NCBI RefSeq assembly: GCF_029537235.1
Contig: NZ_CP120638.1
Coordinates: 4,032,501 to 4,096,500, forward strand
Direction: 5' to 3'
Length of the DNA stretch: 64,000 bases
Source of the DNA: Rhizobium sp. 32-5/1
GTDB taxonomy: Bacteria > Pseudomonadota > Alphaproteobacteria > Rhizobiales > Rhizobiaceae
Positions 9,460-52,001 of the stretch are shown here, piece by piece; position 1 is the stretch's first letter; every line of letters starts with the position of its first letter. The position numbers were made by a program, and so were the translations under genes. Below the pieces are notes generated by a model that saw only the letters and a program-made list of their open reading frames with translations, was not told the DNA's origin and did not search any database.

Positions 9460-9471
9460 ACGGAGACAATC

Positions 9472-20062: not shown

Positions 20063-21066
20063 TCAGCGTGCGGCCTGTAGCGTCAGCTTGCGCTCGGCGC
20101 GTTCCTGTTGGGGTGAGCGGTTATAGAGCTCGCGATAACACTTGGAAAAATGCGAGGCGGAAACGAAGCCGCAGGCGACCGCCACTTCAACGACGGGCAT
20201 GGCCGACTGGACGAGTAGATGGCGTGCGCGGTCCAGCCGGATTTCCAGATAGTAGCGGGCAGGGGAGCGACCCATTTCCTGGCGGAACAGGCGTTCGATC
20301 TGGCGGCGCGAAAGGCCGGCGCTGTCGGCGATCTCCAGCAGCGACAAGGGCTCCGAGAGGTTGCCTTCCATCAGTTCGATGATCGACAGGACCTTGGCAT
20401 TCTGGACCCCCAGACGGGCGCGCAGTGGCAGGCGCTGGCGGTCATGCGGGCCGCGCACGCGGTCGGTCAGGGCCTGCTCGCAGACGCGGTTGACGAGGTT
20501 TTCGCCAAAATCCTGGTCGATCAGGTTGAGCATCATGTCGAGCGAGGCCGTACCGCCGGCGCAGGTGTAGATATTTCCGTCGATTTCGTAGAGATCGGCA
20601 TAGACATCGACCTGGGGAAGCTTTCGGCAAAGCCGGGCAGGTTTTCCCAGTGAATAGCACAACGCTTGCCAGTCAAGAGGCCGGCAGAGGCCAGCACATG
20701 GGCGCCCGTACAGAGGCTGCCGACGGAGACGCCGCGATTGTAGACTTCGCGCAGCCAGGCATTGACGGATTTGTTGTAGAAATCTTCGACATAAATGCCG
20801 GAACAGACCAGCACCATGGAGGGACGGTTTTCGCCGCCCAGATATTTGCGTTCGTCGGCCAAGGATGAATTGACCTCGATACCGATACCGCTCGACGACA
20901 GCACCTGAAGGCCATCGGTCGAGGCGAGGCGCCACGTATAGGCCTCGTAGCCGAGCATGCGGTTTGCTATGCGCAGGGTCTCGATCGCCGCGGAAAACGG
21001 CAGCATGGAAAAGTTCGGCACCAGAAAGAAAACGAGGGATCGTTTTTTAGTCATTGGCTTGTTCAT
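20063..21066 (-). CDS. GlxA family AraC-type transcriptional regulator, frameshifted
   Basis: This is a transcription regulator with an N-terminal DJ-1/PfpI-like (class I amidotransferase-like) domain and a C-terminal AraC DNA-binding domain. The first part carries VGSLCTGAHVLASAGLLTGKR and breaks at a C4 run near 20618-20622. Adding one C joins it to QVDVYADLYEIDGNIYTCAGGTA in the other frame. The HTH region includes LLEIADSAGLSRRQIERLF and CGFVSASHFSKCYRE. GlxA-type regulators include the betaine and carnitine catabolism regulators GbdR and CdhR. It lies 3 kb from the methyl-transfer module, so a link is possible but unproven. ATGs at 21066 and 21054 are both possible starts. Confidence 0.87.
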
Positions 21067-21426
21067 GAGACGGTTCCATGGCCAGAGGATGTCGCATTTG
21101 TCACGTGGAATCTGGATTCCCAGCTGGCCTGAATACGACATTCGCATGGATGTCCGCGACGGGGAAGAAATAAATATTTGCGACATGGGGCGTGCCGCCT
21201 CAAAACTGGTCATTCGGCGATGCGGGCGCCTATTCTTTTTGCCTTCAGCGACGAATATGTCGTTTTCGGAAAACTATGCTGGAAGATGAACGGTCGTTCG
21301 TGGAGGTTCCCAATGGTTGCAGAGTTTGCAATTTGCGACGTGTGCGGCTCGCCCATTGCCGCATGTCGGATTTGGAGTATTCGAAGTTTGTGACCCTGTC
21401 GTTGCGTACCGAAAGACGCTGAATCA
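21067..21426. other. Intergenic region, no gene recognised
   Basis: This stretch lies upstream of the GlxA-type regulator (minus strand) and downstream of the DUF1127 gene terminator. The short frames present overlap on both strands and show no conserved motif, signal peptide or convincing ribosome binding site. The regulator's promoter is expected here, but I cannot place it. Confidence 0.4.
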
Positions 21427-23080: not shown

Positions 23081-23105
23081 AGCTTCGTTCGGGGGCGAAC
23101 AGCGA

Positions 23106-24238: not shown

Positions 24239-26278
24239 TCAGTCGCGGCTGCGCCGCCTGCGCCGTCCGCCACCTTCGCCATCGTCGGCCAGCACCTTGC
24301 GCTCCGGCAGGGTCACCACGGCCGAAAGCTTGGGGAAGGTATCGACCTTGTTCGGCAGAGCCATGGCGTAGACGAAATGCTCCTGGAACTTCGGCTCCAG
24401 CGCCGTCTCGATCTTCTCGATGCGGTTGACCGTCTGCTCGATTTCGCGGCGGTGGCTACGGTTGAGCAGAGCCATCAGCGCGCCGGTTCCGGCCGCGTTT
24501 CCAACAGCCTTCACTTCGGACAGGTCGCAGTCCGGAATGAGCCCGAGCACCATGGCGTATTTGGGATCGATGAACGAGCCGAAAGCGCCGGCAAAGCGGA
24601 TCGTATCGACATGCTCGATCTCGAGCTTTTCCATCAGAAGCTTGATGCCGGCATAGAGTGCGGCCTTGGCGAGCTGGATGGCGCGCACGTCGTTCTGGGT
24701 AACCGTGATGCGCTGCTCGCCGTCGTGCAGCAGATAGGAGAACGTGCGGCCGTTTTGGAGGATACGCGGGCTCTTTTCCGCCATCGCACCATCGACGACG
24801 CCGTCTTCCGAGATGATGCCGGCAAGATACATTTCCGCGACCACCTCGATAATCGCCGAGCCGCAGATGCCGGTGACGCCCACCGCAGCCGCATCCTCGG
24901 CAAAACCCTCTTCATCCGACCACTTCTCGACACCGATGACGCGGAATTTCGGCTCCAGCGTCACGGGATCGATGCGCACGCGCTCTATTGCACCGGGAGC
25001 GGCCCGCTGTCCCGAGGAGATTTCGGCACCTTCGAAGGCCGGGCCGGTGGGCGAGGAGGCGGCGACGCAGCGTTTGCTGTTGCCGAGCACGATTTCGGCA
25101 TTGGTGCCGACATCGACGAGCAGCATCATCTTGTCTTGCCGATAGGGGCCTTCGGCAAGCGTTGCGCCTGCGGCGTCAGCGCCGACATGGCCAGCGATGC
25201 AGGGCAACATGTAGAGCCGTGCGCCCCTGTTGACGTCGATGTCGATCTCGTGCGCCCAGAACTGCAGCGCACCGGAAACCGCGAGCGCAAACGGCGCCTG
25301 ACCGAGTTCGGTCGGGTCGATGCCTAGGAACAGGTGGTGCATGATCGGATTGCCGACAAAGACCATGTCGAGAATGTCGTGACGGTCGACTTCGCCTTCC
25401 GCGCAGACCTTGCCGATCAGCACGTTAATTGCCTCGCGTACGGCCTTGGTCATGGCTTCCCGGCCATCCGGGTTCATCATGACATAGGAGACGCGGCTCA
25501 TCAGGTCTTCGCCGAAGCGGATCTGCGGATTGGAGGTGCCGGAGGAGGCAACGATGCGGCCGGACAGCAACGAGACAAGGTGCATGGCGATCGTCGTCGA
25601 GCCGATGTCGCAGGCAATGCCATAGGCCTCGTTCTTCAGGCCGGGATAAAGCGCGACGATGAACGGGCGCGAACTATCCATGTCGCGATGGATGGCGGCG
25701 GTCACGCCCCAGTTACCCTTGCGCAGGATGCCCTGAACTTGCGGGATCAGGTGTGGCGCGATCAGCAGATCCTTCCAGCCCCAGTCCTTTTCCAGCATGA
25801 CCTTCAGCCGGTCGAGATCACCGAGCGGCTTGTGCATGTCGGGCTCATCGACTTCGACATAACACAGCTGGATCGCCGCATTGCGCTCGATAACGCGGTC
25901 CGTTGCGGCCTTGCGCACCACCTGTGCGTTGATCACCGTATCTTGCGGCACGTCGATGACGAGGTCACCGAGGATTTGAGCGGAGCAGGAGAGGCGCCGG
26001 CCATCGGGCAGGTCGCGGACCGAGGCGTAGCGCTGTTCCTTGGGGCCGAGCGGCGAGATATGGTCGTTGGACGAGACGATCTTGTGCTTGGCGAAATTGC
26101 CTTCCTGCACGGTCACCTGACAGCGCCCGCAGGTGGCTCGCCCGCCGCAGACGCTCTCGACATAGACGCCAAGCTGACGTGCGGCATCGAGCACCGGCGT
26201 GCCAACCGGAAAACGGCCGCGCTTGCCCGAAGGCATGAAGAGGACGAGGGGATCGCTTTTGTTCTGCTCTGCCGACAC
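24239..26278 (-). CDS. [2Fe-2S] ferredoxin-ASKHA (DUF4445) corrinoid-reactivating protein, RamA/RACo-like
   Basis: This 679-residue cytosolic protein is predicted to reduce and reactivate inactive Co(II) corrinoid proteins with ATP. Residues 1-110 form a plant-type [2Fe-2S] ferredoxin with Cys44, Cys50, Cys53 and Cys98 (CX5CX2C...C). After a linker, the ASKHA ATPase domain contains GIACDIGSTTIAMHLV, FGEDLMSRVSY, VGNPIMHHL, DVGTNAEIVLG and GICGSAIIEVVAEMY, all DUF4445 landmarks. The C-terminus is arginine-rich (GGGRRRRRSRD). It lies at the 3' end of the corrinoid methyl-transfer operon, just as reactivases accompany methyltransferases in methanogens and acetogens. Confidence 0.92.
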   Translation of the reverse strand: MSAEQNKSDPLVLFMPSGKRGRFPVGTPVLDAARQLGVYVESVCGGRATCGRCQVTVQEGNFAKHKIVSSNDHISPLGPKEQRYASVRDLPDGRRLSCSAQILGDLVIDVPQDTVINAQVVRKAATDRVIERNAAIQLCYVEVDEPDMHKPLGDLDRLKVMLEKDWGWKDLLIAPHLIPQVQGILRKGNWGVTAAIHRDMDSSRPFIVALYPGLKNEAYGIACDIGSTTIAMHLVSLLSGRIVASSGTSNPQIRFGEDLMSRVSYVMMNPDGREAMTKAVREAINVLIGKVCAEGEVDRHDILDMVFVGNPIMHHLFLGIDPTELGQAPFALAVSGALQFWAHEIDIDVNRGARLYMLPCIAGHVGADAAGATLAEGPYRQDKMMLLVDVGTNAEIVLGNSKRCVAASSPTGPAFEGAEISSGQRAAPGAIERVRIDPVTLEPKFRVIGVEKWSDEEGFAEDAAAVGVTGICGSAIIEVVAEMYLAGIISEDGVVDGAMAEKSPRILQNGRTFSYLLHDGEQRITVTQNDVRAIQLAKAALYAGIKLLMEKLEIEHVDTIRFAGAFGSFIDPKYAMVLGLIPDCDLSEVKAVGNAAGTGALMALLNRSHRREIEQTVNRIEKIETALEPKFQEHFVYAMALPNKVDTFPKLSAVVTLPERKVLADDGEGGGRRRRRSRD

Positions 26279-26304
26279 GATCAGTTTCTTCCTTATGCCT
26301 TGGC

Positions 26305-26646
26305 CTATTCGCTCAGACGTCGCGCATTGGCGCGGACACGGCTGCCATAGGGTTTCAGGGCCGCGACAGCGACGCGGTCGGAGGCGCCTGAAAGGCCAGC
26401 GCAGGTGCCGGTTGCAAGCGCCGCGACGGCGATCATGCCTTCCTTCACCATGGCCGTATTCACGGCCATGACGCTTTCCATGGCGGCAGACAGTTTCTCG
26501 GTGATCATCTGCCCGATTTCCGCAGCACCTCCGGTCGATCCGTTCATGCCGGAGATGGCAAGGTCCTGCATGCGCGAGGACACGACCATCGGGGCCTGGA
26601 ACCAGAGGCTCGCAAATTCGTCGAGCAGGTCTGCACTGAAAAACAT
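26305..26646 (-). CDS. Small helical protein of unknown function in the methyl-transfer operon
   Basis: This is a 113-residue protein, rich in Ala and Met and predicted to be mainly alpha-helical: MFFSADLLDEFASLWFQAPM, then GGAAEIGQMITEKLSAAMES and KEGMIAVAALATGTCAGLSG. It has no signal peptide and no known catalytic motif. Its heptad-like character recalls phasins or helical scaffolds, but I cannot assign a family. It lies 26 bp upstream of the ASKHA reactivase gene and 72 bp after the pterin-dependent methyltransferase gene, all on one strand, so it is probably a conserved accessory of the module. Confidence 0.65.
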   Translation of the reverse strand: MFFSADLLDEFASLWFQAPMVVSSRMQDLAISGMNGSTGGAAEIGQMITEKLSAAMESVMAVNTAMVKEGMIAVAALATGTCAGLSGASDRVAVAALKPYGSRVRANARRLSE

Positions 26647-26718
26647 GGTGTCTCTTTCCGGGCGGGTATACCGCCGTTTGTGCCTGGCCCTTCCGAATGA
26701 TTCCGGACGGGCGTGGCT

Positions 26719-27666
26719 TTATTCCGGGCGTGCGCGCCCCGCACGTCCACCGCGACGACCGCTGGAGGCACCCGGCGCTGCTGTCGATGCCGCGGCGGCT
26801 TCTCCGGGCTTGTGGTCACGATAGCTCATGATCCAGTTGCCGCAGTTCGGGTCCGTTCCGTTCAGCACGTTGGCTGCGCGGACCGCTTCCATTTCCTGCG
26901 GACGGCAGGGGTTCATGATCGCCGACGTCATGCCGGCGCCGATGACCATCGGGATGAAGCCGGCATTGATGCCATGGCGATGCGGCAGGCCGAACGAGAT
27001 GTTCGACAGGCCGCAGGTGGTGTTGACCTTCAGTTCGTTGCGCAGGCGGTAGAGCAGCGCGAAGACCTGACGGCCGGCATCGCCGAGCGCACCGATCGGC
27101 ATGACCAGCGGGTCGACGATGATATCGTGCGGCTTGATACCATAATCCATGGCCCGCTCGACAATTTTCTTCGCAACTGCGAAACGCACGTCCGGATCCA
27201 TGGAAATGCCGGTTTCGTCATTCGAGATCGCGACAACAGGAACGTCGTATTTCTTGCAAAGCGGCAGGATAGCTTCGAGCTTTTCCTCTTCGCCGGTCAC
27301 CGAATTGACCAGCGGCCGGCCCTTGGCGACTTTCAGTGCAGCCTCGATGGCGGCGGTAACGGAGCTGTCGATCGACAGGGGAACGTCAACGAGGCCCTGG
27401 ACGATTTCCATGGTCTGGACAAGCAGGCCCGGTTCGGTTTCGTTCGGATTGACCGAAGTGACGCCGGCATTGACGTCGAGCATGGTGGCGCCGGCGGCGA
27501 CCTGTTCCAGCGCGTCCTTGATGACGGTGTCGAAATTGCCGACGATCATTTCCGCAGCGAGCTTCTTGCGGCCCGTCGGGTTGATGCGCTCGCCGATCAC
27601 GCAAAAGGGCTGGTCGAAGCCGATGATGATTTCGCGGGTGGCGGAGGCAACGATGGTGCGGGTCAT
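26719..27666 (-). CDS. Pterin-binding methyltransferase (methyltetrahydrofolate:corrinoid type, AcsE/MtrH-like)
   Basis: This is a predicted enzyme moving a methyl group between a corrinoid protein and tetrahydrofolate. It contains the pterin-binding TIM-barrel motifs VIGERINPTGRKKL, TMLDVNAG, PLSIDSS, NSVTGEEEKLE, ISNDETG, IVDPLVMPIG and TTCGLSNISFGLP with its conserved Asn, in the order seen in AcsE and the MetH pterin domain. I choose the ATG at 27666 (MTRTIVASATRE). The C-terminal tail after residue about 290 is low-complexity and basic (GRRGGRAGRARPE). In this operon it probably accepts methyl from the corrinoid protein to make 5-methyl-THF. Confidence 0.92.
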   Translation of the reverse strand: MTRTIVASATREIIIGFDQPFCVIGERINPTGRKKLAAEMIVGNFDTVIKDALEQVAAGATMLDVNAGVTSVNPNETEPGLLVQTMEIVQGLVDVPLSIDSSVTAAIEAALKVAKGRPLVNSVTGEEEKLEAILPLCKKYDVPVVAISNDETGISMDPDVRFAVAKKIVERAMDYGIKPHDIIVDPLVMPIGALGDAGRQVFALLYRLRNELKVNTTCGLSNISFGLPHRHGINAGFIPMVIGAGMTSAIMNPCRPQEMEAVRAANVLNGTDPNCGNWIMSYRDHKPGEAAAASTAAPGASSGRRGGRAGRARPE

Positions 27667-27770
27667 GTCTGATCCTCTGGTCGGGTGGCGCATCCGCTTT
27701 GCTTACGGCGGCTGGTGTGTTTTGGGAAGATGCGCCGGACGACGCATCCCGATTGTTTTTCAGCAGGCGG

Positions 27771-28866
27771 TCAGTGCGGGCGATGCGCCGCGACGTCGGC
27801 CATTTCCTGCTGGTTTTCGGTCTTGCCCTCGCGCAGCGCTTCCATGCGCTCGGCAACGAGCTGGTCGCCGAGGTTGGATCTCGCGCTTCCAGGGCGTGCG
27901 GCCCTTCAGGACGCCCGATTCGTGGACGATCTCGGCGACATATTCTTCCTGGCGATAGGCCATGACGTGCACGCCCGAGACGCCGGCAATTTCCTTGACC
28001 TCGTTGATGATGTCGATGCAGAGCTGCTTGCCTTCCTTCTTCTGGTCCTGCGCGCCTTCCAGGCGGGCGATGATCGAATCAGGAATATGGATGCCCGGAA
28101 CGTTCGAGCGGATCCACTTGGCGGTCTTGGCGGATGCCAGCGGGCCGACGCCGCAGAGGATGTAGCATTTCTCGTCGAAGCCGAGATCGCGGACCTTCTG
28201 CATGTAGCTCCGGAACATCGGCACGTCGAAGCAATACTGGCTCTGGACGAACTGCGCGCCGGCCTCGATCTTCTTGCCGAGCCGGTAGGGACGGAAATCA
28301 TAGGGCGGGGCGAAAGGATTGATGGCAGCACCGAGGAAGACCTGCGGCGGCGTCGTCAGCTTGCGGCCGGACAGGAACTTGCCGTTGTCGCGCATGATCC
28401 GCACGGTTTCCAGCAGCGACATGCAGTCGAGATCGAAGACCGGCTTTGCGCCCGGCTGGTCGCCGGCCTGCACGCCGTCGCCGGTCAGGCACATGATGTT
28501 GGTGACGCCCATGGCGGCAGCGCCCAGTACGTCGCCCTGGATGGCGATGCGATTCTTGTCGCGGCAGGCGATCTGCATGATCGGCGCATAACCCATGCGG
28601 GTGAGCAGCGCGCAGATGCCGACGGACGACATATGGCAATTGGCGCCGGAGGCATCCACCGCGTTGATGCCGTCTACCCAGCCCTCGAAGATCGCGGCGC
28701 GCTCGTAGACGTCCTGCGGATCGGCGCTGTCGGGCGGGTTGAGTTCGGCAGTGACGGCGAATTCGCCGCGGCGCAGGACGCGTTCCAACCGCCCGCGCGA
28801 GGAATGGCCGGGCAGGGGATCGAGCGGCAGGTCACGGCCAAGGGGATTTTCGTCAATATGCGCCAT
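27771..28866 (-). CDS. Methylenetetrahydrofolate reductase family protein (MetF-like), C-terminus frameshifted
   Basis: This is a TIM-barrel protein of the MTHFR family, here probably working in the oxidative direction (5-methyl-THF to methylene-THF) for assimilation or oxidation of demethylation products. Conserved parts include FAVTAELNPPDSADP, the flavin region NIMCLTGDGVQAGDQPGA, DLDCMSLLETV and EAGAQFVQSQYCFD. The plain frame ends in a basic nonsense tail. Removing one base in GAGATCC (27877-27882, plus strand GATCTC) gives SNLGDQLVAERMEALREGK and a stop at 27771. It lies 3 bp from the MTHFR_C gene upstream. A housekeeping metF could exist elsewhere. Confidence 0.9.
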
Positions 28867-28869
28867 GGC

Positions 28870-29442
28870 TCAAGCGTCCTTTGCTGCCGCTTCGCGGGCT
28901 TCGGCGGCCTGCGCGGTCACGCGCAGCCAGGAGGATGTTTCGCGCAGCGACTGGTTGACCGGCTTCTGCACATTGAGGATCGCATCGCCGCCAACCATGT
29001 TGCGCGAGCCTTCCCAGGCCTTGACCCAGACGCAGGGCATGTCGGGTTCGACCTCGCAATTGCCGTTGGCGCGAACGCCGCCGCAGGGGCCGTTGCGCAG
29101 CTGTTTTGGGCAGTTCATCGGGCAGGACATGCCCGTGGACGACAGCGCGCACTGGCCGCACATGCGACAGTCGAACAGCAGGCCCTTGACGTTGCGCTCG
29201 ATGAAGGTGATCGGCGTTTCCACACGGCTGTAGCCGACCGCCTTCCACAGCGGATGCAGCAGAAGGAAAACATCGGCGAAGCGGTGGTAGAACCACTCGA
29301 GGAAGCGGGAGTGACGCACGGCCCAGAGGCGGATCGTGTAGCTGCGGCGGGCGCGGCGGTTGGGGGACACGCCTGCCGGCGTATAGGCGCCAGTGGTGGC
29401 CTTTTTGGCGGGAGCGGCATTGCCGGGTTTTGCGTCAGCCAT
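28870..29442 (-). CDS. Cysteine-rich MTHFR C-terminal-type protein (partner of MetF-like protein)
   Basis: This 190-residue protein belongs to the 'methylene-tetrahydrofolate reductase C-terminal' family. It has a dense cysteine motif CRMCGQCALSSTGMSCPMNCP then KQLRNGPCGGVR and CEVEPDMPCVWV, which likely binds Zn or an Fe-S cluster. In acetogens a homologous protein partners with MetF in an MTHFR complex. The ATG at 29442 overlaps the upstream 29435-29737 gene by 8 bp and the stop lies 3 bp from the metF-like start, so expression is tightly coupled. A role in passing electrons to or from the MetF-like flavin is inference from family and context. Confidence 0.88.
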   Translation of the reverse strand: MADAKPGNAAPAKKATTGAYTPAGVSPNRRARRSYTIRLWAVRHSRFLEWFYHRFADVFLLLHPLWKAVGYSRVETPITFIERNVKGLLFDCRMCGQCALSSTGMSCPMNCPKQLRNGPCGGVRANGNCEVEPDMPCVWVKAWEGSRNMVGGDAILNVQKPVNQSLRETSSWLRVTAQAAEAREAAAKDA

Positions 29443-29737
29443 TGTCCTTGCCACCCGCCTTTACCAGTGCAACCAGCCGTTCCTTGTCATAGGCCGCCTC
29501 GATTTCGGCGGCTGCCGTGTCGGCTTCGGCTTCCAGATCGTCGGAAACGGGCGTGGGATCTGCCTTGCGCCACTCGGCAAGGTAATCGCCGGATTCGGCA
29601 GCACCCGTGCGCATGGCCGCCATGTCGATTGCTTCGGTAAAGCGCAGGGAAAGTTCGCGCTTGGCGGTCTTGCGTCCCTGCTTGATGATGACCTGCGCGG
29701 GAATATCGCGCCAATAGACGATGATGCGGTCTGCCAT
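29435..29737 (-). CDS. 'Virulence factor' family small protein (PF13769-like)
   Basis: This is a 100-residue protein from the ATG at 29737: MADRIIVYWRDIPAQVIIKQGRKTAKREL. It matches the short 'virulence factor' family found across alphaproteobacteria, whose biochemical role is unknown despite the name. The C-terminal half is acidic and Ala-rich (EAEADTAAAEIEAAYDKE). It overlaps the MTHFR_C gene by 8 bp, so it is part of the methyl-transfer operon. The retained coupling to one-carbon genes suggests a role there rather than in virulence. Confidence 0.78.
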   Translation of the reverse strand: MADRIIVYWRDIPAQVIIKQGRKTAKRELSLRFTEAIDMAAMRTGAAESGDYLAEWRKADPTPVSDDLEAEADTAAAEIEAAYDKERLVALVKAGGKDNG

Positions 29738-29884
29738 GTGTCCCAAATTCTCCTCTTGACCGACAATGCGCATGTCGCGGCCGCATGGCTCATCTCGCCA
29801 CGACGCAGGATATGCTCAAAAGCGACCTTGATGTTCCCCAGGCGAAATAGTCCTAAGATCGATGATAGGGCTTGCGGTCGCGGA

Positions 29885-30669
29885 CTACCAGATGCCGCGT
29901 GCAACACCGTTCCAGAGCCATGTCCAGATCGGCGGATGGTACCACTGTCTTGATGGTCCTGAGGTGGGAACCGGGCGGATCGTGCTATCAAACACGTCCT
30001 CGATGGCCTTGATGGCGATATCGGTCGAGGCTGCCGTCTGCAGCAGCGGATAGGTATGCAGGGTGTCGCGTTTCGATGGCGTCATCCGTGATTGATAAAG
30101 CACGTCGCCGGTATCGACACCCTCGTCGACCAGATGCACCGTTGCGCCGAAATTGGCCGTGTCACCGGTCGCCCGCGCCCAATATCCGCCCATCAGGCCG
30201 CGATATTGCGGGTTGATACCGGCGTGGAAATTCAGGACGGGGCAGGGCATGGCTGACAGCGTCGCGCGGCTCAGCATCCGACAACTGATCAGGAAGACGA
30301 CGTTAGGTGCGAGCTCGCGGATGCGTTCGGCGGATGAAGGTGCATTGATGCTGGCAACGCGGATCACGGCAATATCAGGGTTTTCCGTATCGCTTGCGCC
30401 GTAGTCGCGCAGGATCTCGGCAGCGCGCAAGCGCGTAAAGCGTTTGCCGAATTTGGAGACGGCCATGGTCGCGAACTGGCCACCAGCGGCAAACCATCCC
30501 AGTTTTTTTGCCCGGCGTTTCAAGAAGACCGATTTCGATTCCGGCTCTTCGAGGACGACGGTGATGGCGCTTGCGCCGAACCGGCCCGCGAGCGCATTGA
30601 TCATGACTTGCGGATTTGTGCCCCCGCCGTGACGACGACGATGCGCTTCTCTGGGTGGGTTCCCTTCAT
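29885..30669 (-). CDS. Formyltransferase family protein (Fmt/GART fold), frameshifted at N-terminus
   Basis: This is a predicted N10-formyl-THF-dependent enzyme of the formyl transferase fold, about 261 residues. The conserved core reads VLNFHAGINPQYRGLMGGYWARATGD and TVHLVDEGVDTGDVLYQ, including the catalytic-type Asn/His/Asp set. The start is the ATG at 30669 (MKGTHPEKRIVVVTAG). A G5 run near 30622-30626 must gain one G to give VVVTAGGTNPQVMINALAGR. It lies 9 bp after the exoD-like gene. It could be a formyltransferase for a sugar or amine, or act on a folate pool linked to the methyl-transfer operon; the substrate is unknown. Confidence 0.82.
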
Positions 30670-30678
30670 GCCTGGCTC

Positions 30679-31322
30679 CTAGAAAATGAAGCTGACGAGG
30701 GCTCCGGCTGCGGCAACAACGGCTGCAGCGACGGCGATCGATCCGACACCGATCGTCGTGCCGATCAGGAGACTGATGCCGTCACGTTCCGTGTGAGCAA
30801 AGCCGATGACGGCAAGCGCAAAGGCCGGCAGCCAGTTTCCGAAGGGGATAGGCAGGAAGATGATCACGGCAAGGATGAGGGCGAGCAGACCGACAAGGCG
30901 CTCGGAAAAACGGCTGCCGAGGAACCAGGCGCGTGGTTTCACCAGCGTTTCGGCGCGCACCAACCAGGGCGTGATGCGGGTGACGATCGCGGCAAAGCTT
31001 GCCTGTTCGAAGGCATAGTCGCCCATGCGCTTCGGCAGCCAGATGCGTGTGCGGCGCGAGGCGAACATCTGCCAGGCAACGAAGATCAGCGGCAGGCCGA
31101 GGATGAAGGTGGCGCCCGGCGGCAGGGAATGAGATTGGGAAGCGCGAAGACGACGAGGAAGGCGCCGAAGGACCGGTCCTCCATGGCAACGGCGAGATCG
31201 CGAAGCGTCACTTTTGGGCCGGAATTGAGGGCGAGATTGCGAAGGAGATGGGAGAGTTGGCGATCGGTATGGCCGTAAGATTGCGCTCTGGCCTGTGCCC
31301 CGTTTGAAAACGTATCCGTCAT
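30679..31322 (-). CDS. ExoD family membrane protein, frameshifted
   Basis: This is an ExoD-type inner-membrane protein of about 214 residues after repair. ExoD was named for an exopolysaccharide and alkaline-sensitivity phenotype in Sinorhizobium; its mechanism is unknown. The N-terminal half from ATG 31322 (MTDTFSNGAQARA; LAVAMEDRSFGAFLVVFALPNLIP) breaks at a C3 run near 31126-31128. One added C continues LPPGATFILGLPLIFVAWQM and three more hydrophobic helices. It lies between the DUF1638 and formyltransferase genes on the same strand, so it is probably in the operon or read through. Confidence 0.84.
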
Positions 31323-31453
31323 CTCGTCCCCGTTCCGTTTCTTGCTTGTTGTCAATCAGTCTGGCGGGGTGTGTTTACGATCGACTTAAGGCAGGAACGG
31401 GGAAATGCTTAAAATTGTTCGCAAGGCTAACGGAAGGTTTCGACCGCGCGTCG

Positions 31454-32052
31454 TCAGAGGGTGAGCAATGCGGGTGTAAGATCGCCATATCCGGTGTAGC
31501 GATATTCGTAGGCAAGACCGAGCTTTTCCGCCGCGGCTTTGGCCTTTCGCTGGAGGGTTTCGTCTTCCACCTGCGAGAGGTAAATCAGCTTTCGGTAATG
31601 GCCGAAATACATATCGCGCAGTTCCGGATGGCGATCGAGCCCCAGCGGTTCGATGACGAAGGCCTCGAACTGGCGGGCGAGAAAGTCCGTCAGGAAAAAG
31701 CGGTCAGGTCCTCATCCCAGCGCTGCTCGAAATCGGCATTGCCGGCAAAGAACGAAAAACAGTGCGGACCGGCGATGCGTCCGACCTTTTCTTCCTCGCA
31801 GAGCCGGTCGAGATGGCCCCCTGTACCGCAATCGGCATAGGCGACAAAGATGCGGCTGAAGCCTGCCAGCCGTGCCTTGTCGATTGCGGCCTTGATGCCG
31901 GGCGTGATCTTGTCGGGGGTGTTGTGCCAGATGGCGGGAAGACAGCTCAGCTCGATATGATCAAGGCCGTTTGCTTCGCAGACAGCCAGAATTTCGCGGG
32001 CGATAGCACCGCAACCAATCACGTGAACTTTTTCAGCACTCGTGCGTTTCAT
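31454..32052 (-). CDS. DUF1638 family protein, frameshifted
   Basis: This protein of unknown function, about 199 residues after repair, often neighbours MttB-type methyltransferases and corrinoid proteins. It starts at ATG 32052 (MKRTSAEKVHVIGCGAIAREI) and contains IELSCLPAIWHNTPDKI and RIFVAYADCGTGGHLDRL, with conserved cysteines typical of DUF1638. The frame breaks at a T5 run near 31695-31700; adding a T yields LTAFFLTDFLARQFEAF and then MYFGHYRKLIYLSQ to a stop at 31454. The cysteines and G-C-G motifs suggest metal or cofactor handling, but no activity is established. It lies 300 bp from the corrinoid-protein gene, with a small plus-strand gene between. Confidence 0.85.
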
Positions 32053-32110
32053 GACTGTTGGATCACTTCCATCGCAGTTTCGTGTTGAACCATCTAAAGG
32101 AATCCAGACC

Positions 32111-32269
32111 ATGACAGCAAAGACAATCGCGACCGTTGGCGTCGTTCTCCTCGCACTCACCACACTGAGCGCCTGCGGCAATACGATCCGGGGTGTTGGC
32201 CGTGATGCCGCCAATACGGTGGATGCAACTCAGGATGCCGGCCGCAACGTCGAGAATGCTGCCCAGTAA
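32111..32269 (+). CDS. Entericidin A/B family small lipoprotein
   Basis: This is a 52-residue lipoprotein: signal MTAKTIATVGVVLLALTTLSAC with lipobox LSAC, then GNTIRGVGRDAANTVDATQDAG, the hallmark of the entericidin EcnA/B family. These proteins sit at the cell envelope and have been described as toxin/antidote-like or stress-related in enteric bacteria; the rhizobial role is unknown. It is the only plus-strand gene inside the minus-strand operon region and is followed by its own terminator at 32294-32327. Confidence 0.88.
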   Translation: MTAKTIATVGVVLLALTTLSACGNTIRGVGRDAANTVDATQDAGRNVENAAQ

Positions 32270-32293
32270 AGGGTTCCTGATGAGCATATAGTG

Positions 32294-32327
32294 AAACGGC
32301 CGCTCCCGTAACAGGGGCGGCCGTTTT
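32294..32327 (+). terminator. Rho-independent terminator after entericidin gene
   Basis: AAACGGCCGC at 32294-32303 pairs with GCGGCCGTTT at 32317-32326, with further CC/GG pairs inside, followed by a short T run. The stem is nearly symmetrical, so it may also act on the minus-strand transcript from the corrinoid protein gene ending at 32355. Confidence 0.85.
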
Positions 32328-32354
32328 CGCTTTCAGCTTTGAAATCCGCAGCGA

Positions 32355-33053
32355 TCAGGCGCCGGACATCTGATTGTGCTTGCGTTTCATGAATTCCTTG
32401 GCGGTCTCAACGGCCACGGCCGCATCGCGGCAATAGGCATCGGCGCCGACGGCCTTGCCGAATTCCTCGTTGAGTGGTGCGCCGCCGACAAGCACGACGT
32501 AATCGTCGCGCATGCCTTTTTCCTTCATCGTGTCGATGACGACCTTCATATAGGGCATAGTCGTCGTCAGAAGGGCGGACATGCCCAGGATATCGGGTTG
32601 TTCACGCTCAATGGCCTCGAGATAGTTTTCGACCGGATTGTTGATGCCGAGATCGATCACGTCGAAGCCGGCCCCTTCCATCATCATACCCACGAGGTTC
32701 TTGCCGATGTCGTGGATGTCGCCCTTGACGGTGCCGATAACCATCTTGCCCTGCTTGGGGGCGCCTGTGGCAGCGAGCAGCGGACGCAGGATGAACATGC
32801 CGGCCTTCATGGCATTGGCCGACAGCAGAACTTCCGGAACGAACAGGATGCCATCCCGGAAATCGACGCCAACGATCCGCATACCTTCGACCAGAGCCTG
32901 GGTCAGGATGTCGTAGGGTACCCAGCCGCGCTTCAGCAGGATATTGGTCGCATCCTCGATTTCTTCCTTCAGGCCGTCATAGAGGTCGTCGTGCATCTGC
33001 TGCACGAGTTCGTCGTCGGAGAGATCCTCGAGAATGATTTCGTCGTCTGCCAT
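32355..33053 (-). CDS. Corrinoid (B12-binding) methyl carrier protein, MtbC/MttC-like
   Basis: This 232-residue cytosolic protein carries the methyl group on a bound corrinoid. It has an N-terminal helical cap domain (about 1-95: EEIEDATNILLKRGWVPYDIL, FVPEVLLSANAMKAG) and a C-terminal Rossmann-like B12 domain. The axial-ligand motif DxHxxG is GDIHDIGKNL, with His114. SALLTTTMPYMK and VLVGGAPLNEEF complete the binding site. The start is the ATG at 33053. It faces mttB (33519) across a 465-bp divergent region, as expected for partner proteins: the MttB protein methylates this carrier, and the pterin-dependent enzyme at 26719 demethylates it. Confidence 0.94.
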   Translation of the reverse strand: MADDEIILEDLSDDELVQQMHDDLYDGLKEEIEDATNILLKRGWVPYDILTQALVEGMRIVGVDFRDGILFVPEVLLSANAMKAGMFILRPLLAATGAPKQGKMVIGTVKGDIHDIGKNLVGMMMEGAGFDVIDLGINNPVENYLEAIEREQPDILGMSALLTTTMPYMKVVIDTMKEKGMRDDYVVLVGGAPLNEEFGKAVGADAYCRDAAVAVETAKEFMKRKHNQMSGA

Positions 33054-33518
33054 GATCGGTTTCCTCGGTTTGTGCGCTCGGTCAGCATGGTCCCGTCGCG
33101 ACACATCTGTCAATAAAACATCTATACCGGCATTGTTCCGTCCCAATGGCACAACACCCAGGCGAGGCCTGAAGGCGACTCGATCCTGCTCCTCCTGCCA
33201 TCGTTATCCGTCTTGCGACGGAAATCCCTTTTCGAAAGCGACGCTGCATGCGATGAAAAACGACGACGGCTGCCCGACGGCATTTTGTAGCCTGATGTGC
33301 TTAACAAAAACAACAGATTATGAAGCGGTTGAGCGCCGAAACGGATAGGACGGAACAAGGATTGCGACATACGACGCGAGGCGCAAAAGCGTGTTGCTGC
33401 CACCGGTGTCCGACCTGCGTCACTTGGTGGCGCATTAAGAACCGTATCGCCTTGGCCTGTTGGTAGCATAGTTTCAAATGACAGTGCAGCGACTGCACGG
33501 GAGCGAGGAAAGACAGAG
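33054..33518. promoter_or_regulatory. Divergent promoter region between corrinoid protein and mttB genes
   Basis: This 465-bp gap separates two divergent operons of the methyl-transfer module and should contain both promoters. The frames found here are antisense extensions without conserved motifs. I see no riboswitch elements and no clear palindromic operator. The ribosome binding site of mttB (GAGGAAAG) is at about 33505-33512. Confidence 0.5.
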
Positions 33519-35092
33519 ATGAGCGACAAGATCGAACTGACCGAAGCTGAGGCTGGCGGTCGCCGCACGCGCGGTGAGGGCCGCGGAGCCGCAGCCCGTA
33601 GGGCCTCCCGTACCGGTGGTGGTGCCGGCCCCTCGCTGCCGTTCATTACCCGCAAGATCAAGGAATACGAGGTTCTCGATGAGGAAGGCCTGCAACTGAT
33701 CGAGAACAATGCCGATCTGATCCTTGAAGAGATCGGCATCGAGTTCCGCGAGGACCCGGAAGCGCTCGAACTCTGGCGTAAGGCCGGTGCCGACGTTCGC
33801 GGCGAACGCGTGCATTTCCCGAAGGGCCTCTGCCGCGAAATCCTGAAGACTGCACCGTCCAGCTTCACCTGGCATGCCCGCAATCCGGAGCGCAATGTCA
33901 CGATCGGCGGCAAGGCCACCGTGTTCGCACCGGTCTACGGCCCTCCCTTCGTGCGCGATCTCGAGGGTGTGCGCCGTTACGCGACGATCGAGGATTTCCG
34001 CAATTTCGTGAAACTCGCCTATTTGGCGCCGTCTGTCCATTCCTCGGGCGGCACCGTCTGCGAGCCGGTCGATGTGCCGGTCAACAAGCGCCATCTCGAC
34101 ATGATCTACAGCCACATCAAATATTCCGACAAGCCGTTCATGGGATCGGTCACGGCGCCGGAACGCGCCGAAGACACAATCGCCATGGCCAAGCTCGTCT
34201 TCGGCGATAATTTTGTCGAAAACAATTGCGTGACGCTCAACCTGATCAATGCCAATTCGCCGATGGTCTTCGACGAAACCATGGTCGGCGCACTCAAGGT
34301 CTATGCACGTCACAATCAGGCCTGTGTGATTTCGCCATTCATCCTGTCGGGCGCCATGAGCCCGGTAACCGTGGCCGGCACGCTGACGCAGATCCTGGCC
34401 GAAGTTCTGGCCGGTGCTGCCTTCACGCAGCTGATCCGGCCGGGCGCTCCGGTCCTGTTCGGCACTTTTGCCGCCTCGATCTCGATGCAGTCAGGTGCGC
34501 CGACCTTCGGTTCGCCCGAGCCGTCGCTCGTTTCCTATGGCGCGGCCCAGCTCGCCCGTCGCCTCGGACTGCCGTTCCGTACCGGCGGCTCGCTCTGCGG
34601 CTCCAAAGTTCCCGACGCGCAGGCCGCACACGAATCGGCCAACACGATCAACATGACGCTGCTCGCCGGCACGAATTTCGTGCTTCACGCCGCCGGCTGG
34701 CTGGAAGGGGGCTCGTCTCCTCCTATGAAAAGTTCATGATCGACCAGGACCAGCTCGGCATGATGCAGAAGCTCGCGCAGGGCGTCGATCTGTCTGAAAA
34801 CGCCCAGGCGCTGGATGCTATCCGCGAAGTCGGCCCCGGCAGCCACTATCTCGGCTGCGCCCACACGCAGGCCAATTTCCAGACGGCATTCTACCGTTCG
34901 GCGCTGGCCGACAACAATTCCTATGAGCAATGGGAAGTCGAAGGCGAAAAGCGCATCGAGCAGCGGGCGAACGCCTTGTGCCGCAGCTGGCTCGACCAGT
35001 ATGAGGCGCCCTATCTCGATCCGGCGATCGACGATGCGCTGAAGCAGTTCATCGCTCAGAAGAAGGATTCGATGCCTGACGCCTTCACCTGA
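33519..35092 (+). CDS. MttB/MtgB superfamily corrinoid methyltransferase (non-pyrrolysine), frameshifted
   Basis: This is a predicted methyltransferase taking a methyl group from a quaternary or tertiary amine to the corrinoid protein, about 524 residues after repair. Family landmarks include EYEVLDEEGLQLIENNADLIL, FVRDLEGVRRYATIEDFRNF, SDKPFMGSVTAPERAED, SPFILSGAMSPVTVAGTLTQ and GTNFVLHAAGWLEGG. The frame breaks in a G5 run (34708-34712); one G restores GGLVSSYEKFMIDQDQLGM. No in-frame TAG is present in the conserved part, so it belongs to the non-pyrrolysine clade that includes glycine betaine methyltransferase MtgB. The N-terminus has a basic, Gly-rich extension. The true substrate is unknown; betaine fits bmt and the transporter in this window. 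Confidence 0.9.
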
Positions 35093-35202
35093 AGCGAGCC
35101 CGAAAGCGCCAGGGAGCAAGGCGGCGCGTCGCAGGTGGCGGACTTCATACAGAAGGCAGTCTGGCGGTCGCACTACAACACGGTTCGAGGGCCCATGCCG
35201 AA

Positions 35203-35893
35203 ATGACGGATGGCAATCGCCTGATCAATGAAGTCCGTGCGGTTCTTAAGCCGCACGGACTTTTTGCGCGGTACCGTCAATTTCGAGCCGGGCGAGGCGG
35301 GGCCTGCGCTCGTTGTTGGGGGCACCGCCCGATCCGTTGTCCTGGTCGGCAATATCGGCAGCTCCTTCTGGCCGGCCTTCCAGCGCTGGCGTAACGGCTC
35401 GCTGGCAACGGATCATCCCCTCGATGACTGGTCGAAAGCGGTCATCCGCCCGATCGCCAAGGCATTTGATGCAACGCCGTTCTTTCCGTCCGATCAACCC
35501 TTCCAGCCATTTCAGCAATGGGCGATGCGGGCGGAAGGTCTGAAAAGCTCGCCGCTTGGAATTCTGATCCATCCGCAATTCGGGCTCTGGCATGGCTACC
35601 GTGCCGCCCTGGCGTTCGACCGTCCCTTGCCGCAGACAGGGTCTTCGCCAGCAGCGCATCCCTGCGATACCTGCATGGACAAACCCTGCCTTTCGCGCTG
35701 TCCCGCCGATGCGGTGACGCCGGTAGCATTCGATGTCGCCGCCTGCCGCACGCATCTGGCGACGCCGGAAGGTGATGCCGGCTGCATGGTCGGTGGGTGT
35801 CTGGCGCGGGGGCACTGTCCCGTCGGTGCGTCCTATCGCTATGATCAGGCGCAGTTGCAGTTTCACATGGCAGCGCTCTGGCGGCTCTTTTAA
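35203..35893 (+). CDS. 4Fe-4S ferredoxin-like protein, frameshifted near the N-terminus
   Basis: This is about 230 residues after repair. The ATG at 35203 gives MTDGNRLINEVRAVLKPHGL; a T5 run near 35262-35266 needs one more T to continue FLRGTVNFEPGEAGPALVVGG. The C-terminal third has a ferredoxin-like cysteine set, CDTCMDKPCLSRCP then CRTHLATPEGDAGCMVGGCLARGHCP, resembling the epoxyqueuosine reductase (QueG)-type Fe-S region. It is 110 bp downstream of mttB on the same strand and could supply low-potential electrons for corrinoid reactivation; that is inference. Confidence 0.8.
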
Positions 35894-42824: not shown

Positions 42825-43844
42825 TTACTGGCGGCGACGACCCGTGCGTTCGCGCGGTGCGCCGGTCGGGCCTTCATTGGCGGTCTTGTTGCGCATGGGC
42901 CCGATACGTTCGACAATGGTCTCGATGGTCGGCCGCTCTCCGGGCGTATACTCGTCCAGCGCCACGCGCATCGCGGCCAGGTGTTCGCAGGACGTGCCGC
43001 AGCAGCCGCCGATGATGCGCGCGCCGGCATCGCGGGCGAGCCGCGCATAGTCCGCCATCAGCGGCGGCGTGCCGGAGTAAAAGATCTCGGTGCCGCGGAA
43101 TTCCGGAATGCCGCAATTGCCCTTGACGACGATCGTTGCCGAGGGATCGGCGTCCGTCATGTCAAGCAATGATGACAGGATGTCCGAGGCACCGACACCA
43201 CAATTGGCACCAACGGCGACAGGACCGTCACCAATGTCTTTTGCGACGCCGTGGATGTCGCGCGGGTGCACGCCCATCATCGTCTTGCCGGCGGTATCAA
43301 AAGAGCCGGTGTAGACATAGGGCATGCCGAGCTTGACGGCGGCCTCGGCTGCGGCACGGATTTCGTCGGCGGACGACATCGTCTCGATCCAGGCGACTTC
43401 GGCGCCGCCAGCCTTCAGGCCTTCGATCTGTTCGGCAAAGGCTGAAACCGCATCCTCATAGGACATCGCGCCGAGCGGGATGAGCAGTTCTCCTGTCGGG
43501 CCGACGGAGCCGGCGGTAATCACCTTGCGCGGCGCCTGATCGGCAACAGCCCGGGCAATTTCGGCCGCCCGCTTGTTGAGTTCGAACACGCGGTCCTGCG
43601 CATGGTGGAGCTTGAGGCGGTGACGGGTGCCGCCGAAGGAGTTCGTCAGGATAATGTCGGCGCCGGCATCGACGAAGTCCTGGTGCAGCTTTGTGATATT
43701 CTCCGGCTTGGTTTCGTTCCACAGTTCCGGCGCCTCGCCGGCTTCCAGGCCCATGGCAAACAGCGACGTCCCGGTCGCACCGTCTGCAAGCAGCACGCCC
43801 TTTTCTGCAAGGAGGGCGGAGAGTGGGTTGGCATGCGCGCTCAT
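42825..43844 (-). CDS. bmt: Betaine-homocysteine S-methyltransferase
   Basis: This 339-residue zinc enzyme transfers one methyl from glycine betaine to homocysteine, giving dimethylglycine and methionine. The zinc ligands of the Hcy-binding family are seen as Cys215 (GANCGVG) and Cys281/Cys282 (GGCCGTS). Other motifs are LLADGATGTSLFAMGLEAGE, DIILTNSFGGTRHRLK, AGSVGPTGELL and WIETMSSADE. The ATG at 43844 is chosen because the upstream ATG at 43877 lies in a palindrome. Rhizobial Bmt proteins of this type are known to support methionine synthesis from betaine. Its upstream palindrome (43874-43897) suggests control by methionine-cycle metabolites. Confidence 0.9.
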   Translation of the reverse strand: MSAHANPLSALLAEKGVLLADGATGTSLFAMGLEAGEAPELWNETKPENITKLHQDFVDAGADIILTNSFGGTRHRLKLHHAQDRVFELNKRAAEIARAVADQAPRKVITAGSVGPTGELLIPLGAMSYEDAVSAFAEQIEGLKAGGAEVAWIETMSSADEIRAAAEAAVKLGMPYVYTGSFDTAGKTMMGVHPRDIHGVAKDIGDGPVAVGANCGVGASDILSSLLDMTDADPSATIVVKGNCGIPEFRGTEIFYSGTPPLMADYARLARDAGARIIGGCCGTSCEHLAAMRVALDEYTPGERPTIETIVERIGPMRNKTANEGPTGAPRERTGRRRQ

Positions 43845-43873
43845 GGTCTGGTCCTTAACTGTCCTGTTGGTCA

Positions 43874-43897
43874 TCATATAAAGATATCGTTATATGA
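43874..43897. promoter_or_regulatory. 24-bp palindromic operator-like site upstream of bmt
   Basis: TCATATAAAGAT and ATCGTTATATGA form a palindrome with 11 of 12 pairs matching, centred on GATATC. It lies 30 bp upstream of the chosen bmt start. The shape resembles operators of SAH/SAM-responsive ArsR-type regulators of methionine-cycle genes in alphaproteobacteria; I have no direct evidence for which protein binds it. Confidence 0.6.
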
Positions 43898-45521: not shown

Positions 45522-46573
45522 CTATTCCGCGGCCTGCATTGCCGGCTCATGGCTGATAGGTGTGACCATGGCTGAGATGATTGCGGACAGATCGATCGAG
45601 CCAACCGTTTTACCGTCAAGCGTCACGACATGCGCCTTCGTCTGGTTGGCCACCGTCATCATGCGGGCCGCAACTTCCAGAACTGTACCAATGACCACAG
45701 GAATGCCTTCGGGGTTTCCGGAAAGCGGCCTCATGATGGTTTCGACGTTGATCACCCGGCCACGGTTCACTTCCTTGACGAAGGCGGTGATATATTCATC
45801 CGCCGGTTTCAGGACGATTTCCTGACCGCTTCCCTGCTGGATGACCTTCCCGTCGCGCAGGATGGCGATCTTGTCGCCGAGACGCAGCGCCTCGTCGAGA
45901 TCGTGGGTGATGAACACCACGGTCTTTTTCAGTTCCTTCTGCAGGTCGAGAAGAACCGTCTGCATATCGACGCGGATCAGCGGGTCAAGTGCCGAATAGG
46001 CTTCGTCCATAAGCAGGATGTCGGCATCATTCGTCAGTGCGCGCGCAAGACCTACACGCTGCTGCATGCCGCCCGACAACTGGTTTGGATAGTGATTCTC
46101 GAAACCCTTGAGGCCGACACGCTCGATCCATTGCTGGGCTCGCTTGCGGCTTTCCGCATCCGGAACCCCTGAATTTCGAGACCGTAGATGGTGTTCTCGA
46201 TGATCGTCCGGTGCGGCAGAAGCGCGAACTTCTGGAAGACCATCGCCGTCTTGTGGCGGCGGAATTCCCGAAGGTCGTTTTCGTTCATCTTGCAGACGTC
46301 GACGCCGTCATAAAGGACTTCGCCTGCCGTCGGGTCGATCAGCCGGTTTATATGTCGAATGAGGGTGGACTTGCCGGAGCCGGACAGACCCATGACCACC
46401 ATGACGCCGCCGGCGGGCATGGAGATGTTGATATCCTGGAGGCCCAGAACATGGCCGTGTTTCTCGTTGAGTTCGCCCTTGCCAAGGCCAGCCTTGACCT
46501 GATCGACGAAGTCGCGGCCGCGTGGTCCGAAGATCTTGTAGAGGTTCTTGACCTCGATTGCATGACTAGCCAT
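45522..46573 (-). CDS. choV: Betaine/choline ABC transporter ATP-binding protein (ProV/ChoV), frameshifted
   Basis: This is an ATPase of about 350 residues for quaternary amine import. The N-terminal part (MASHAIEVKNLYKIFG; Walker A GLSGSGKST; Q-loop MVFQKFALLPHRT) breaks at a G4 run near 46165-46168; one added G gives QGVPDAESRKRAQQWIERVGLKGF. Then follow the signature LSGGMQQRVGLARAL, Walker B ILLMDEAYSALDP and a C-terminal CBS-type region (VIGTVLEVAARMMTVANQTKAHVV). It starts inside the permease gene end (8-bp overlap). Whether choline, glycine betaine or proline betaine is the main substrate cannot be told from sequence; the gene symbol is by family. Confidence 0.87.
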
Positions 46574-47477: not shown

Positions 47478-47753
47478 GTCGTTCCCCTTTTTTAACCGGA
47501 AATTTTATAGGCCGGCCGTGTCATCGAACAGGTTACCTGTTCCAGCACGGACTTTTCGCTGGTCTCTGCGGACCCCGGCATGTTTTTTGATCCGTCGTGC
47601 GCCCCTCCGGACGTCATGACATTTCAACATCGAACATGAACGTTGAAAAGGGCGCTGGCCGTATTTCGTTCATGGGCTGAAACGTGGCAGTTTCCGGTCT
47701 CGCCTGCTTTGTTGTTTGCGACGCCTAGACCGGGTGTTTTGCGCATCAAGCGC

Positions 47754-47788
47754 AAAAAGGCAGCGAACCGCTACGGTCCACTGCCTTC
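47754..47788 (-). terminator. Intra-operon (attenuating) terminator between binding protein and permease genes
   Basis: AAGGCAG at 47757-47763 pairs with CTGCCTT at 47781-47787, with CCGTAGCGG-type inner pairing. On the minus strand a TTTTT run follows. It lies 13 bp after the binding-protein stop (47801). Such partial terminators often keep the periplasmic receptor in excess over the membrane complex. Confidence 0.8.
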
Positions 47789-47800
47789 TTCCTTATCGGA

Positions 47801-51438: not shown

Positions 51439-51590
51439 AACTCGACCCCACGGGTGAGATTCACACAGGACTTCGCATCGACGGTCGGCGAGTGGATGAC
51501 CGTAGGCATGGTCGCACTTGTCCAATCCGCTGATTGACTTTGCCGCCAGCCGCCCATAATCATCGGCCATTGGATGGTTCCCGCAGGGCG

Positions 51591-51951: not shown

Positions 51952-52001
51952 GCATACTGCCCGCCTACGGGACGTTTCCCGATGCCAGCACGGAGGTTGT
52001 C

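What the first reader, a model, noticed from the sequence alone, without database searches (positions are those of the whole stretch)
24239..35893. Complete corrinoid-dependent methyl-transfer module in an apparently aerobic rhizobial genome
One locus holds all the parts seen in anaerobic methylamine/betaine demethylation: an MttB-type methyltransferase, a corrinoid carrier with DxHxxG, a pterin-dependent methyltransferase (AcsE/MtrH-like), MetF-like and MTHFR_C proteins, and a [2Fe-2S]-ASKHA reactivase. This would take methyl groups from a quaternary amine to tetrahydrofolate and onward. Such modules are best studied in methanogens and acetogens; here they sit with aerobic-type cobalamin synthesis. 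Substrate and redox partner are unknown.
Basis: partly seen in the sequence, partly recalled or inferred. Interest (0 to 1): 0.85.

Follow-up and report, generated by a model that had tools for sequence, protein, structure and literature searches.

The report
B12-dependent betaine demethylation cluster in rhizobia
A rhizobium carries a vitamin-B12 gene set, of a kind already published for aerobic bacteria, that most likely strips methyl groups from glycine betaine and passes them to folate and partly to methionine; what looks new is a tiny protein labelled 'virulence factor' that travels with this gene set.

Summary
In detail: all named parts are there, although mttB and the DUF1638 gene are frameshifted in this assembly, most likely by assembly error: the mttB frame is open in 80 of 80 named relatives and in 23 of 25 other genomes of the genus. 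The surprise is mostly gone. This is the aerobic MtgBCDE system: in Ruegeria pomeroyi MtgC and MtgD are needed for growth on glycine betaine and for methionine, and that paper names the clustered Sinorhizobium locus (PMC12478193). Glycine betaine is the likeliest substrate. MetH is also present, so the methionine role may be minor here. New: PF13769 (29435-29737). In 172 sampled genomes of the class, 32 of 32 carriers also have MttB and RACo. It is in 70 of 70 rhizobial loci that span RACo to MttB, also in the 14 without MetF2 and MetV, and beside a module gene in 20 of 20 loci I picked from 67 carriers. My searches found no paper linking it to B12.

The parts
20063..21213 (-). GbdR-like AraC/DJ-1 regulator, in two frames (20063-20935 and 20533-21213); candidate betaine-responsive activator
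   Evidence: NCBIfam GbdR 120.8 bits, below its 480 cut-off, on the N-terminal piece; HTH_18 and DJ-1_PfpI. Conservation beside the module not tested.
24239..26278 (-). RACo/RamA-type [2Fe-2S] ASKHA corrinoid reactivase
   Evidence: PF14574 E 2.3e-89; 3zyy over residues 11-649; Cys 44/50/53/98
26719..27693 (-). MtgD: pterin-binding methyl-THF:corrinoid methyltransferase
   Evidence: PF00809; NF005719 390.5 bits, over its 259 cut-off; PDB relatives include methyl-THF corrinoid/iron-sulfur methyltransferases and methionine synthases
27760..28866 (-). MetF2: second MTHFR, likely run in the oxidising direction (inferred)
   Evidence: PF02219; a separate, higher-scoring MetF lies elsewhere in the genome
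28870..29454 (-). MetV-like MTHFR C-terminal-domain protein (PF12225); the name MetV is recalled
   Evidence: present with MetF2 in 56 and absent with it in 14 of 70 spanning loci
29435..29737 (-). Small protein PF13769 ('Virulence_fact'); proposed unrecognised subunit or accessory factor; its ORF overlaps the metV ORF by 20 nt
   Evidence: PF13769 E 3.9e-26; profile and neighbourhood
31472..32052 (-). DUF1638 protein (PF07796), frameshifted here; predicted cobalamin-reactivation partner (low end approximate)
   Evidence: two-piece match, N-terminal piece; intact relatives aligned
32355..33053 (-). MtgC: corrinoid carrier protein (ORF opens at 33152; probable ATG at 33053)
   Evidence: PF02310, PF02607, NF047996 MtgC 211.8 bits, below its 370 cut-off; DIHDIG
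33519..35092 (+). MtgB/MttB-type methyltransferase; frameshifted near 34.7 kb in this assembly
   Evidence: PF06253; solved close relative 4yyc, 811.8 bits
35228..35893 (+). Ferredoxin-like protein, 8 Cys in two [4Fe-4S]-type sets (reading of the motif is mine); candidate electron donor
   Evidence: no Pfam hit; Cys pattern; about 130-300 nt after mttB in 76 of 80 loci; in 34 of 172 genomes, 25 of them with MttB
42825..43877 (-). MtgE: homocysteine methyltransferase (NCBIfam 'betaine--homocysteine S-methyltransferase')
   Evidence: PF02574, NF005718 571.3 bits, over its 338 cut-off; Cys 226, 292, 293, zinc ligands by recall
45522..48799 (-). Choline/betaine-type ABC transporter
   Evidence: ChoXWV/ProVW-type matches below the NCBIfam cut-offs; OpuAC substrate-binding domain 197.3 bits
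49984..63836 (+). Aerobic-type cobalamin synthesis genes (cobQ, cobW, cobO and others)
   Evidence: ORFs; cobQ, CobW and the adenosyltransferase scanned, the rest read from translations only
51558..51957 (+). Cobalamin riboswitch
   Evidence: RF00174, 49.2 bits

Best explanation
It is the rhizobial form of the aerobic MtgBCDE system. MtgB moves one methyl group from a betaine, most likely glycine betaine, to Co(I) of the corrinoid protein MtgC; MtgD passes it to tetrahydrofolate; MetF2 with MetV oxidises methyl-THF to methylene-THF for C1 oxidation or serine. Run backwards, MtgD and MtgC can hand methyl to MtgE, which makes methionine from homocysteine. When Co(I) is oxidised to Co(II), RACo with ATP and electrons re-reduces it, helped by DUF1638. 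PF13769 is a fixed small partner, probably a docking or cofactor-handling factor of the MtgC/MtgD/reactivase core. Shown by others in R. pomeroyi: MtgC and MtgD needed for growth on glycine betaine and for methionine. Inferred here: the substrate of this MtgB, the direction of MetF2, the electron donor, the roles of DUF1638 and PF13769.
For: Domains and motifs. Published genetics and the S. meliloti synteny (PMC12478193); three-part synthase plus RamA-like and DUF1638 proteins in Phaeobacter (PMC5764234, passages). Of 70 loci chosen for having RACo, MtgC and MttB, MtgD, PF13769 and DUF1638 are in 70; MtgE is within the fetched flank in 64 of 80 loci. Betaine context: ABC transporter and GbdR-like regulator. 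Of three MttB paralogs in the genome this one is nearest to D. hafniense MtgB (47.6% against 43.3%, and 35.3 and 39.4% for the two pieces of the third) and keeps the four residues proposed from docking of glycine betaine in PMC6855144 (Y94, N199, R309, H345 = Y140, N244, R354, H390; passages). A separate, better-scoring MetF (275.4 against 117.1 bits) leaves MetF2 free for catabolism.
Against: No biochemistry on this MtgB; in the paper the mutants were in mtgC and mtgD, not mtgB. The four docked residues come from docking only and paralog L005 has them too; the partner of DhMtgB F353 falls on a Gly here by my own reading of the numbering. MetH is present over model positions 2-1182, so the methionine branch may be idle. 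The window copy of mttB is broken as assembled.
Confidence: 0.8

Rival explanations
1. Same machine, other donor: MtgB demethylates proline betaine, trigonelline, carnitine or another plant quaternary amine.
For: MttB-superfamily enzymes with different donors share one corrinoid protein in Eubacterium, and several MtgB-like genes per genome are common (PMC12478193 Discussion). This genome has three MttB genes; others show up to eight scored matches, eight being the most that the search scored. The docked residues do not separate this copy from paralog L005.
Against: MtgC lies beside this copy in 78 of 80 loci (the other two loci are cut short or lack it); betaine transport lies near; this copy is the nearest to DhMtgB.
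Confidence: 0.17
2. The main job is methionine synthesis (split MetH); betaine use is secondary.
For: MtgC and MtgD are needed for methionine in R. pomeroyi and their counterparts in Phaeobacter; MtgE is near.
Against: This genome has MetH in two adjacent pieces, 1293.7 and 425.2 bits, with the B12 activation domain. MttB and MetF2 have no place in methionine synthesis by this route.
Confidence: 0.15
3. A dying module: mttB and DUF1638 are true pseudogenes in this strain.
For: Both are frameshifted. The comparison with L042 shows no homopolymer bias of the indels: 4 of 30 frameshifting ones in named genes lie next to a run of 4 or more.
Against: Unrelated genes are also in pieces; the low completeness score fits indel errors; open in 80 of 80 named relatives and 23 of 25 of the genus. 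No reads were seen.
Confidence: 0.06
4. PF13769 is only an operon passenger, kept by synteny.
For: Its ORF overlaps that of metV; one operon passed on as a block would give the same profile; no structure match supports a role.
Against: It stays in 14 of 14 spanning loci without MetF2 and MetV; it lies with DUF1638 in some lineages and with an MTHFR and MtgD in others, so the neighbour changes but the link does not.
Confidence: 0.25

Closest known systems
MtgBCDE of Ruegeria pomeroyi (Mausz et al. 2025, PMC12478193)
   Same: MtgB, MtgC, MtgD, MtgE, RamA-like reactivase, DUF1638, second MTHFR; aerobic host; the clustered S. meliloti locus is cited there
   Different: Here clustered with cobalamin synthesis, MetH kept, and an MTHFR of a type that comes with MetV. 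In 7 of 7 loci of family f24 another MTHFR-like protein lies beside PF13769, and no MtgC, DUF1638 or MttB lies within those 20 kb; that f24 is Rhodobacteraceae is my guess
Split methionine synthase of Phaeobacter inhibens (Price et al. 2018, PMC5764234, passages)
   Same: Homocysteine, pterin and B12 proteins apart; RamA-like and DUF1638 proteins
   Different: No PF02965 activation domain found in P. inhibens; here MetH with that domain is present
MtgB of Desulfitobacterium hafniense (2qne; recalled as the source of that entry, and named so in PMC6855144)
   Same: 47.6% identity over 349 columns
   Different: Anaerobic host; no entry named MtgA among the PDB matches of MtgD
RACo-type reactivase (3zyy)
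   Same: Full-length match, [2Fe-2S] Cys pattern
   Different: By recall it serves the corrinoid protein of the acetyl-CoA pathway, which I did not search for here
Pyrrolysine MttB (7xcl)
   Same: Same superfamily
   Different: E 5e-26 only; frames of 80 relatives run on without a stop

Membership tests
Aerobic MtgBCDE system | MtgB (PF06253), MtgC (B12 domains), MtgD (pterin) and MtgE (homocysteine) as separate proteins | tested here: met
   mttB frameshifted as assembled
Aerobic MtgBCDE system | RamA-like reactivase and DUF1638 | tested here: met
   DUF1638 frameshifted as assembled
Aerobic MtgBCDE system | MtgC/MtgD needed for growth on glycine betaine and for methionine | not testable with these tools
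   needs mutants
Aerobic MtgBCDE system | MtgC groups with the roseobacter MtgC rather than the anaerobic ones | not tested
   no tree was built; MtgC matches are 81-99% identical in named loci and 72-84% in the 10 unnamed loci that hold one
Glycine betaine methyltransferase MtgB | Non-pyrrolysine MttB that transfers methyl from glycine betaine to Co(I) | tested here: inconclusive
   4 of 4 conserved docked residues kept; activity not testable
Pyrrolysine MttB (trimethylamine) | In-frame amber codon for pyrrolysine; TIGR02369 over cut-off | tested here: not met
   frames of 80 relatives run 487-526 aa from match start without a stop; 196.2 bits against 525, though scored on the first 406 aa only
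True betaine-homocysteine methyltransferase (Bhmt) | Betaine-binding residues of human BHMT | not tested
   PMC12478193 says the S. meliloti homolog lacks them
Classical MetH | One chain with homocysteine, pterin, B12 and activation domains | tested here: not met
   the domains lie on separate genes in the window; a MetH lies elsewhere in the genome
RACo/RamA reactivase | N-terminal [2Fe-2S] domain and RACo ASKHA domains | tested here: met

The most novel reading that the evidence does not exclude
The small PF13769 protein, filed as 'virulence factor', is a dedicated and so far unrecognised component of the aerobic B12 methyl-transfer core (MtgC, MtgD, RACo, DUF1638), perhaps an adaptor that couples the carrier to reactivation; a two-cluster ferredoxin beside mttB may be the missing electron donor.
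Probability: 0.6. Interest if true: 0.6.

Novelty: new member of a known kind. Interest (0 to 1): 0.42.

Why it matters
Keeping a cob(I)alamin methyl carrier working in an aerobic cell is a real chemical problem. DUF1638 is needed for methionine in Phaeobacter and its exact function was left open there (PMC5764234). A further fixed partner (PF13769) and a candidate ferredoxin give two concrete genes to test for that problem. The locus also lets one ask why rhizobia that keep MetH retain a second, split methionine route.

Tried and rejected
Substrate from sequence alone: the docked residues do not separate paralog L005 from the window copy; paralog L006 lacks the Tyr. Context of the paralogs: among 10 ORFs scanned at each, a LysR regulator and a sugar kinase near L005 and nothing telling near L006. 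Fold of DUF1638: confident model (pLDDT 91.6) but no PDB match at E 0.001; best were weak Rossmann-like hits, glutamate racemase with TMq 0.49; no sequence match below E 0.1. Invariant Cys and His suggest metal or cofactor binding; not shown. Fold of PF13769: pLDDT 75.7, no match at E 0.001, no sequence match below E 0.7. MetH loss as a sign of a split synthase: 15 of 36 MttB genomes carry the MetH activation domain against 78 of 136 others, a weak trend. The P-values ignore relatedness; the 32 PF13769 carriers fall in 27 families. Against PF13769: 4 of 36 MttB genomes and 4 of 36 RACo genomes have none, and 9 of the 32 carriers do not have it within 10 kb of DUF1638 on one contig. The ferredoxin link is looser: 9 of 34 carriers lack MttB, and beyond the window's kin I saw it within 2.3 kb of a module gene in 5 genomes, picked out by eye from the listings. 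The indel comparison with L042 does not show a homopolymer bias. GbcAB, MetE and dimethylglycine genes were not searched.
Full report
Observation. Two points need correction. First, mttB is split over two frames here (33519-34739 and 34226-35092), and DUF1638 is split too. Other genes are in pieces as well: metH lies in two overlapping frames, the third mttB of the genome in two pieces, and the regulator at 20063-21213 in two frames. The assembly scores 87.47% complete. In the genus, 23 of the 25 other genomes have one frame of 524-566 aa; G015 (78% complete) is broken and G022 is cut by contig ends. In 80 of 80 named relatives the frame runs 487-526 aa from the match start to its stop. I take the break as an assembly error, without reads to prove it. 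A DNA comparison with the relative L042 gave 94 indels over 21 kb at 84% identity; of 30 frameshifting ones in named genes 4 lie next to a run of four or more equal bases, so it does not show a homopolymer bias and neither proves nor excludes that reading.

Second, several parts were missed: DUF1638 (about 31472-32052), the small PF13769 protein (29435-29737), a homocysteine methyltransferase (42825-43877), a GbdR-like regulator and a choline/betaine-type ABC transporter. Cobalamin genes follow, with a cobalamin riboswitch at 51558-51957.

What is known. PMC12478193 (abstract, Results and Discussion read) describes this system in aerobic bacteria: MtgC and MtgD are needed in R. pomeroyi for growth on glycine betaine and for methionine; MetF2, RamA and DUF1638 rise on N-osmolytes; and in S. 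meliloti MtgBCDE, the reductive modules and the cobalamin operon are said to be colocalised. [quoted passage not shown] PMC5764234 (passages) showed the three-part methionine synthase with RamA-like and DUF1638 proteins in Phaeobacter and makes no specific proposal for DUF1638. So the kind of system, and nearly this locus, is in print. The nearest named relatives are Rhizobiales isolates, Rhizobium, Shinella and Pararhizobium, then Ensifer/Sinorhizobium. A solved structure of a close relative exists (4yyc, 811.8 bits); its source organism is not given by that call.

Mechanism. The most likely flow is betaine -> MtgC-Co(I) -> THF (MtgD) -> methylene-THF (MetF2/MetV), with a branch to methionine through MtgE, and RACo plus DUF1638 for rescue of Co(II). 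Glycine betaine is favoured because of the published genetics, the transporter and regulator nearby, and because this copy is the nearest of three paralogs to D. hafniense MtgB (47.6% against 43.3%, and 35.3 and 39.4% for the two pieces of the third). Four residues proposed from docking in PMC6855144 (passages) are kept, but they are kept in paralog L005 too. MetH is present here, so the methionine branch may matter little. Of three MTHFR-family matches in the genome, one elsewhere scores 275.4 bits, the window's 117.1 and a third 26.3, which fits MetF2 being an extra, catabolic one.

Conservation. Of 80 named loci, 70 hold RACo, MtgC and MttB, which was my condition for counting; of these 70, MtgD, PF13769 and DUF1638 are in 70. 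MetF2 and MetV are in 56 of 70, always together. In the other 14, MtgD and PF13769 are neighbours in 9 (gap 50-94 nt), and in 5 another MTHFR-like ORF fills the slot; the one of L089 scores 23.3 bits against the 24-bit cut-off of PF02219 (the other four were not scanned). Over all 80 loci, some cut short: MtgC 78, DUF1638 77, PF13769 74, MtgD 73, RACo 70, MtgE 64.

PF13769. In 172 sampled genomes of the class: PF13769 32, DUF1638 31, MttB 36, RACo C-terminal domain 36, MTHFR C-terminal domain 16, MetH activation domain 93. All 32 PF13769 carriers have MttB and RACo; 29 have DUF1638. The MttB genomes without it are G089, G096, G102 and G152, three of them under 85% complete; the RACo genomes without it are G096, G102, G106 and G150. 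The carriers fall in 27 families. PF13769 and DUF1638 are on one contig within 10 kb in 23 genomes, always on the same strand, with a gap of at most 119 nt in 21; the window (1753) and G082 (3743) are the exceptions. In 398 genomes of the phylum PF13769 is in 41; one of them, G272, is outside the class and has the module around it (L163). Of the 67 carriers I looked at 20, picked across genera: PF13769 lies beside DUF1638, MtgD or an MTHFR in 20 of 20. In the 7 of these from family f24 an MTHFR-like gene is next to it and MtgD within 4 kb, but MtgC, DUF1638 and MttB are not within the 20 kb fetched. Neither key paper has the words 'virulence' or 'PF13769' in its main text, a joint search listed only those two papers, without PF13769, and the accession strings gave no hit in main texts; a further joint search showed 10 of 51 papers, none of them on this. 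Supplements were not searchable. I therefore propose it as an unrecognised partner. I recall that in Firmicutes this domain is part of larger proteins named CvfC; no call tested that.

Candidate electron donor. The ORF after mttB (35228-35893) has eight Cys in two sets and follows mttB by about 130-300 nt in 76 of 80 loci. Over the class 34 of 172 genomes have it and 25 of those have MttB. Nine do not, so the link is weaker than for PF13769.

Verdict. A real system of a published kind, intact in relatives; interest moderate. The part worth follow-up is PF13769, then the ferredoxin.

Noticed in passing
window 7907-8120 (+): Strong cobalamin riboswitch (141.5 bits) ahead of an ABC transporter and substrate-binding protein set around 8067-11515, read from translations only; perhaps corrinoid uptake.
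   Followed up: no
window 35228-35893 (+): Ferredoxin-like protein with eight Cys and no Pfam family, after mttB in 76 of 80 rhizobial loci.
   Followed up: partly
L089, L107, L111, L113, L117 (between MtgD and PF13769): A different, divergent MTHFR-like protein takes the place of MetF2 and MetV; a relative of it lies beside PF13769 in 7 of 7 loci of family f24.
   Followed up: partly
G000:C1:1164777-1166270 and 3589120-3590621: Two further MttB-family genes in the genome, the second in two frames; no other module family among the 10 neighbouring ORFs scanned at each.
   Followed up: partly
window 20063-24181, 30679-31278, 31472-32052: Several neighbouring genes appear in two frames, as expected of an indel-prone assembly.
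   Followed up: partly
window 26305-26646 (-): Phasin-like ORF between the reactivase and mtgD genes (NCBIfam PhaP6, 52.3 bits, below its cut-off of 100), found in 27 of 80 loci.
   Followed up: no
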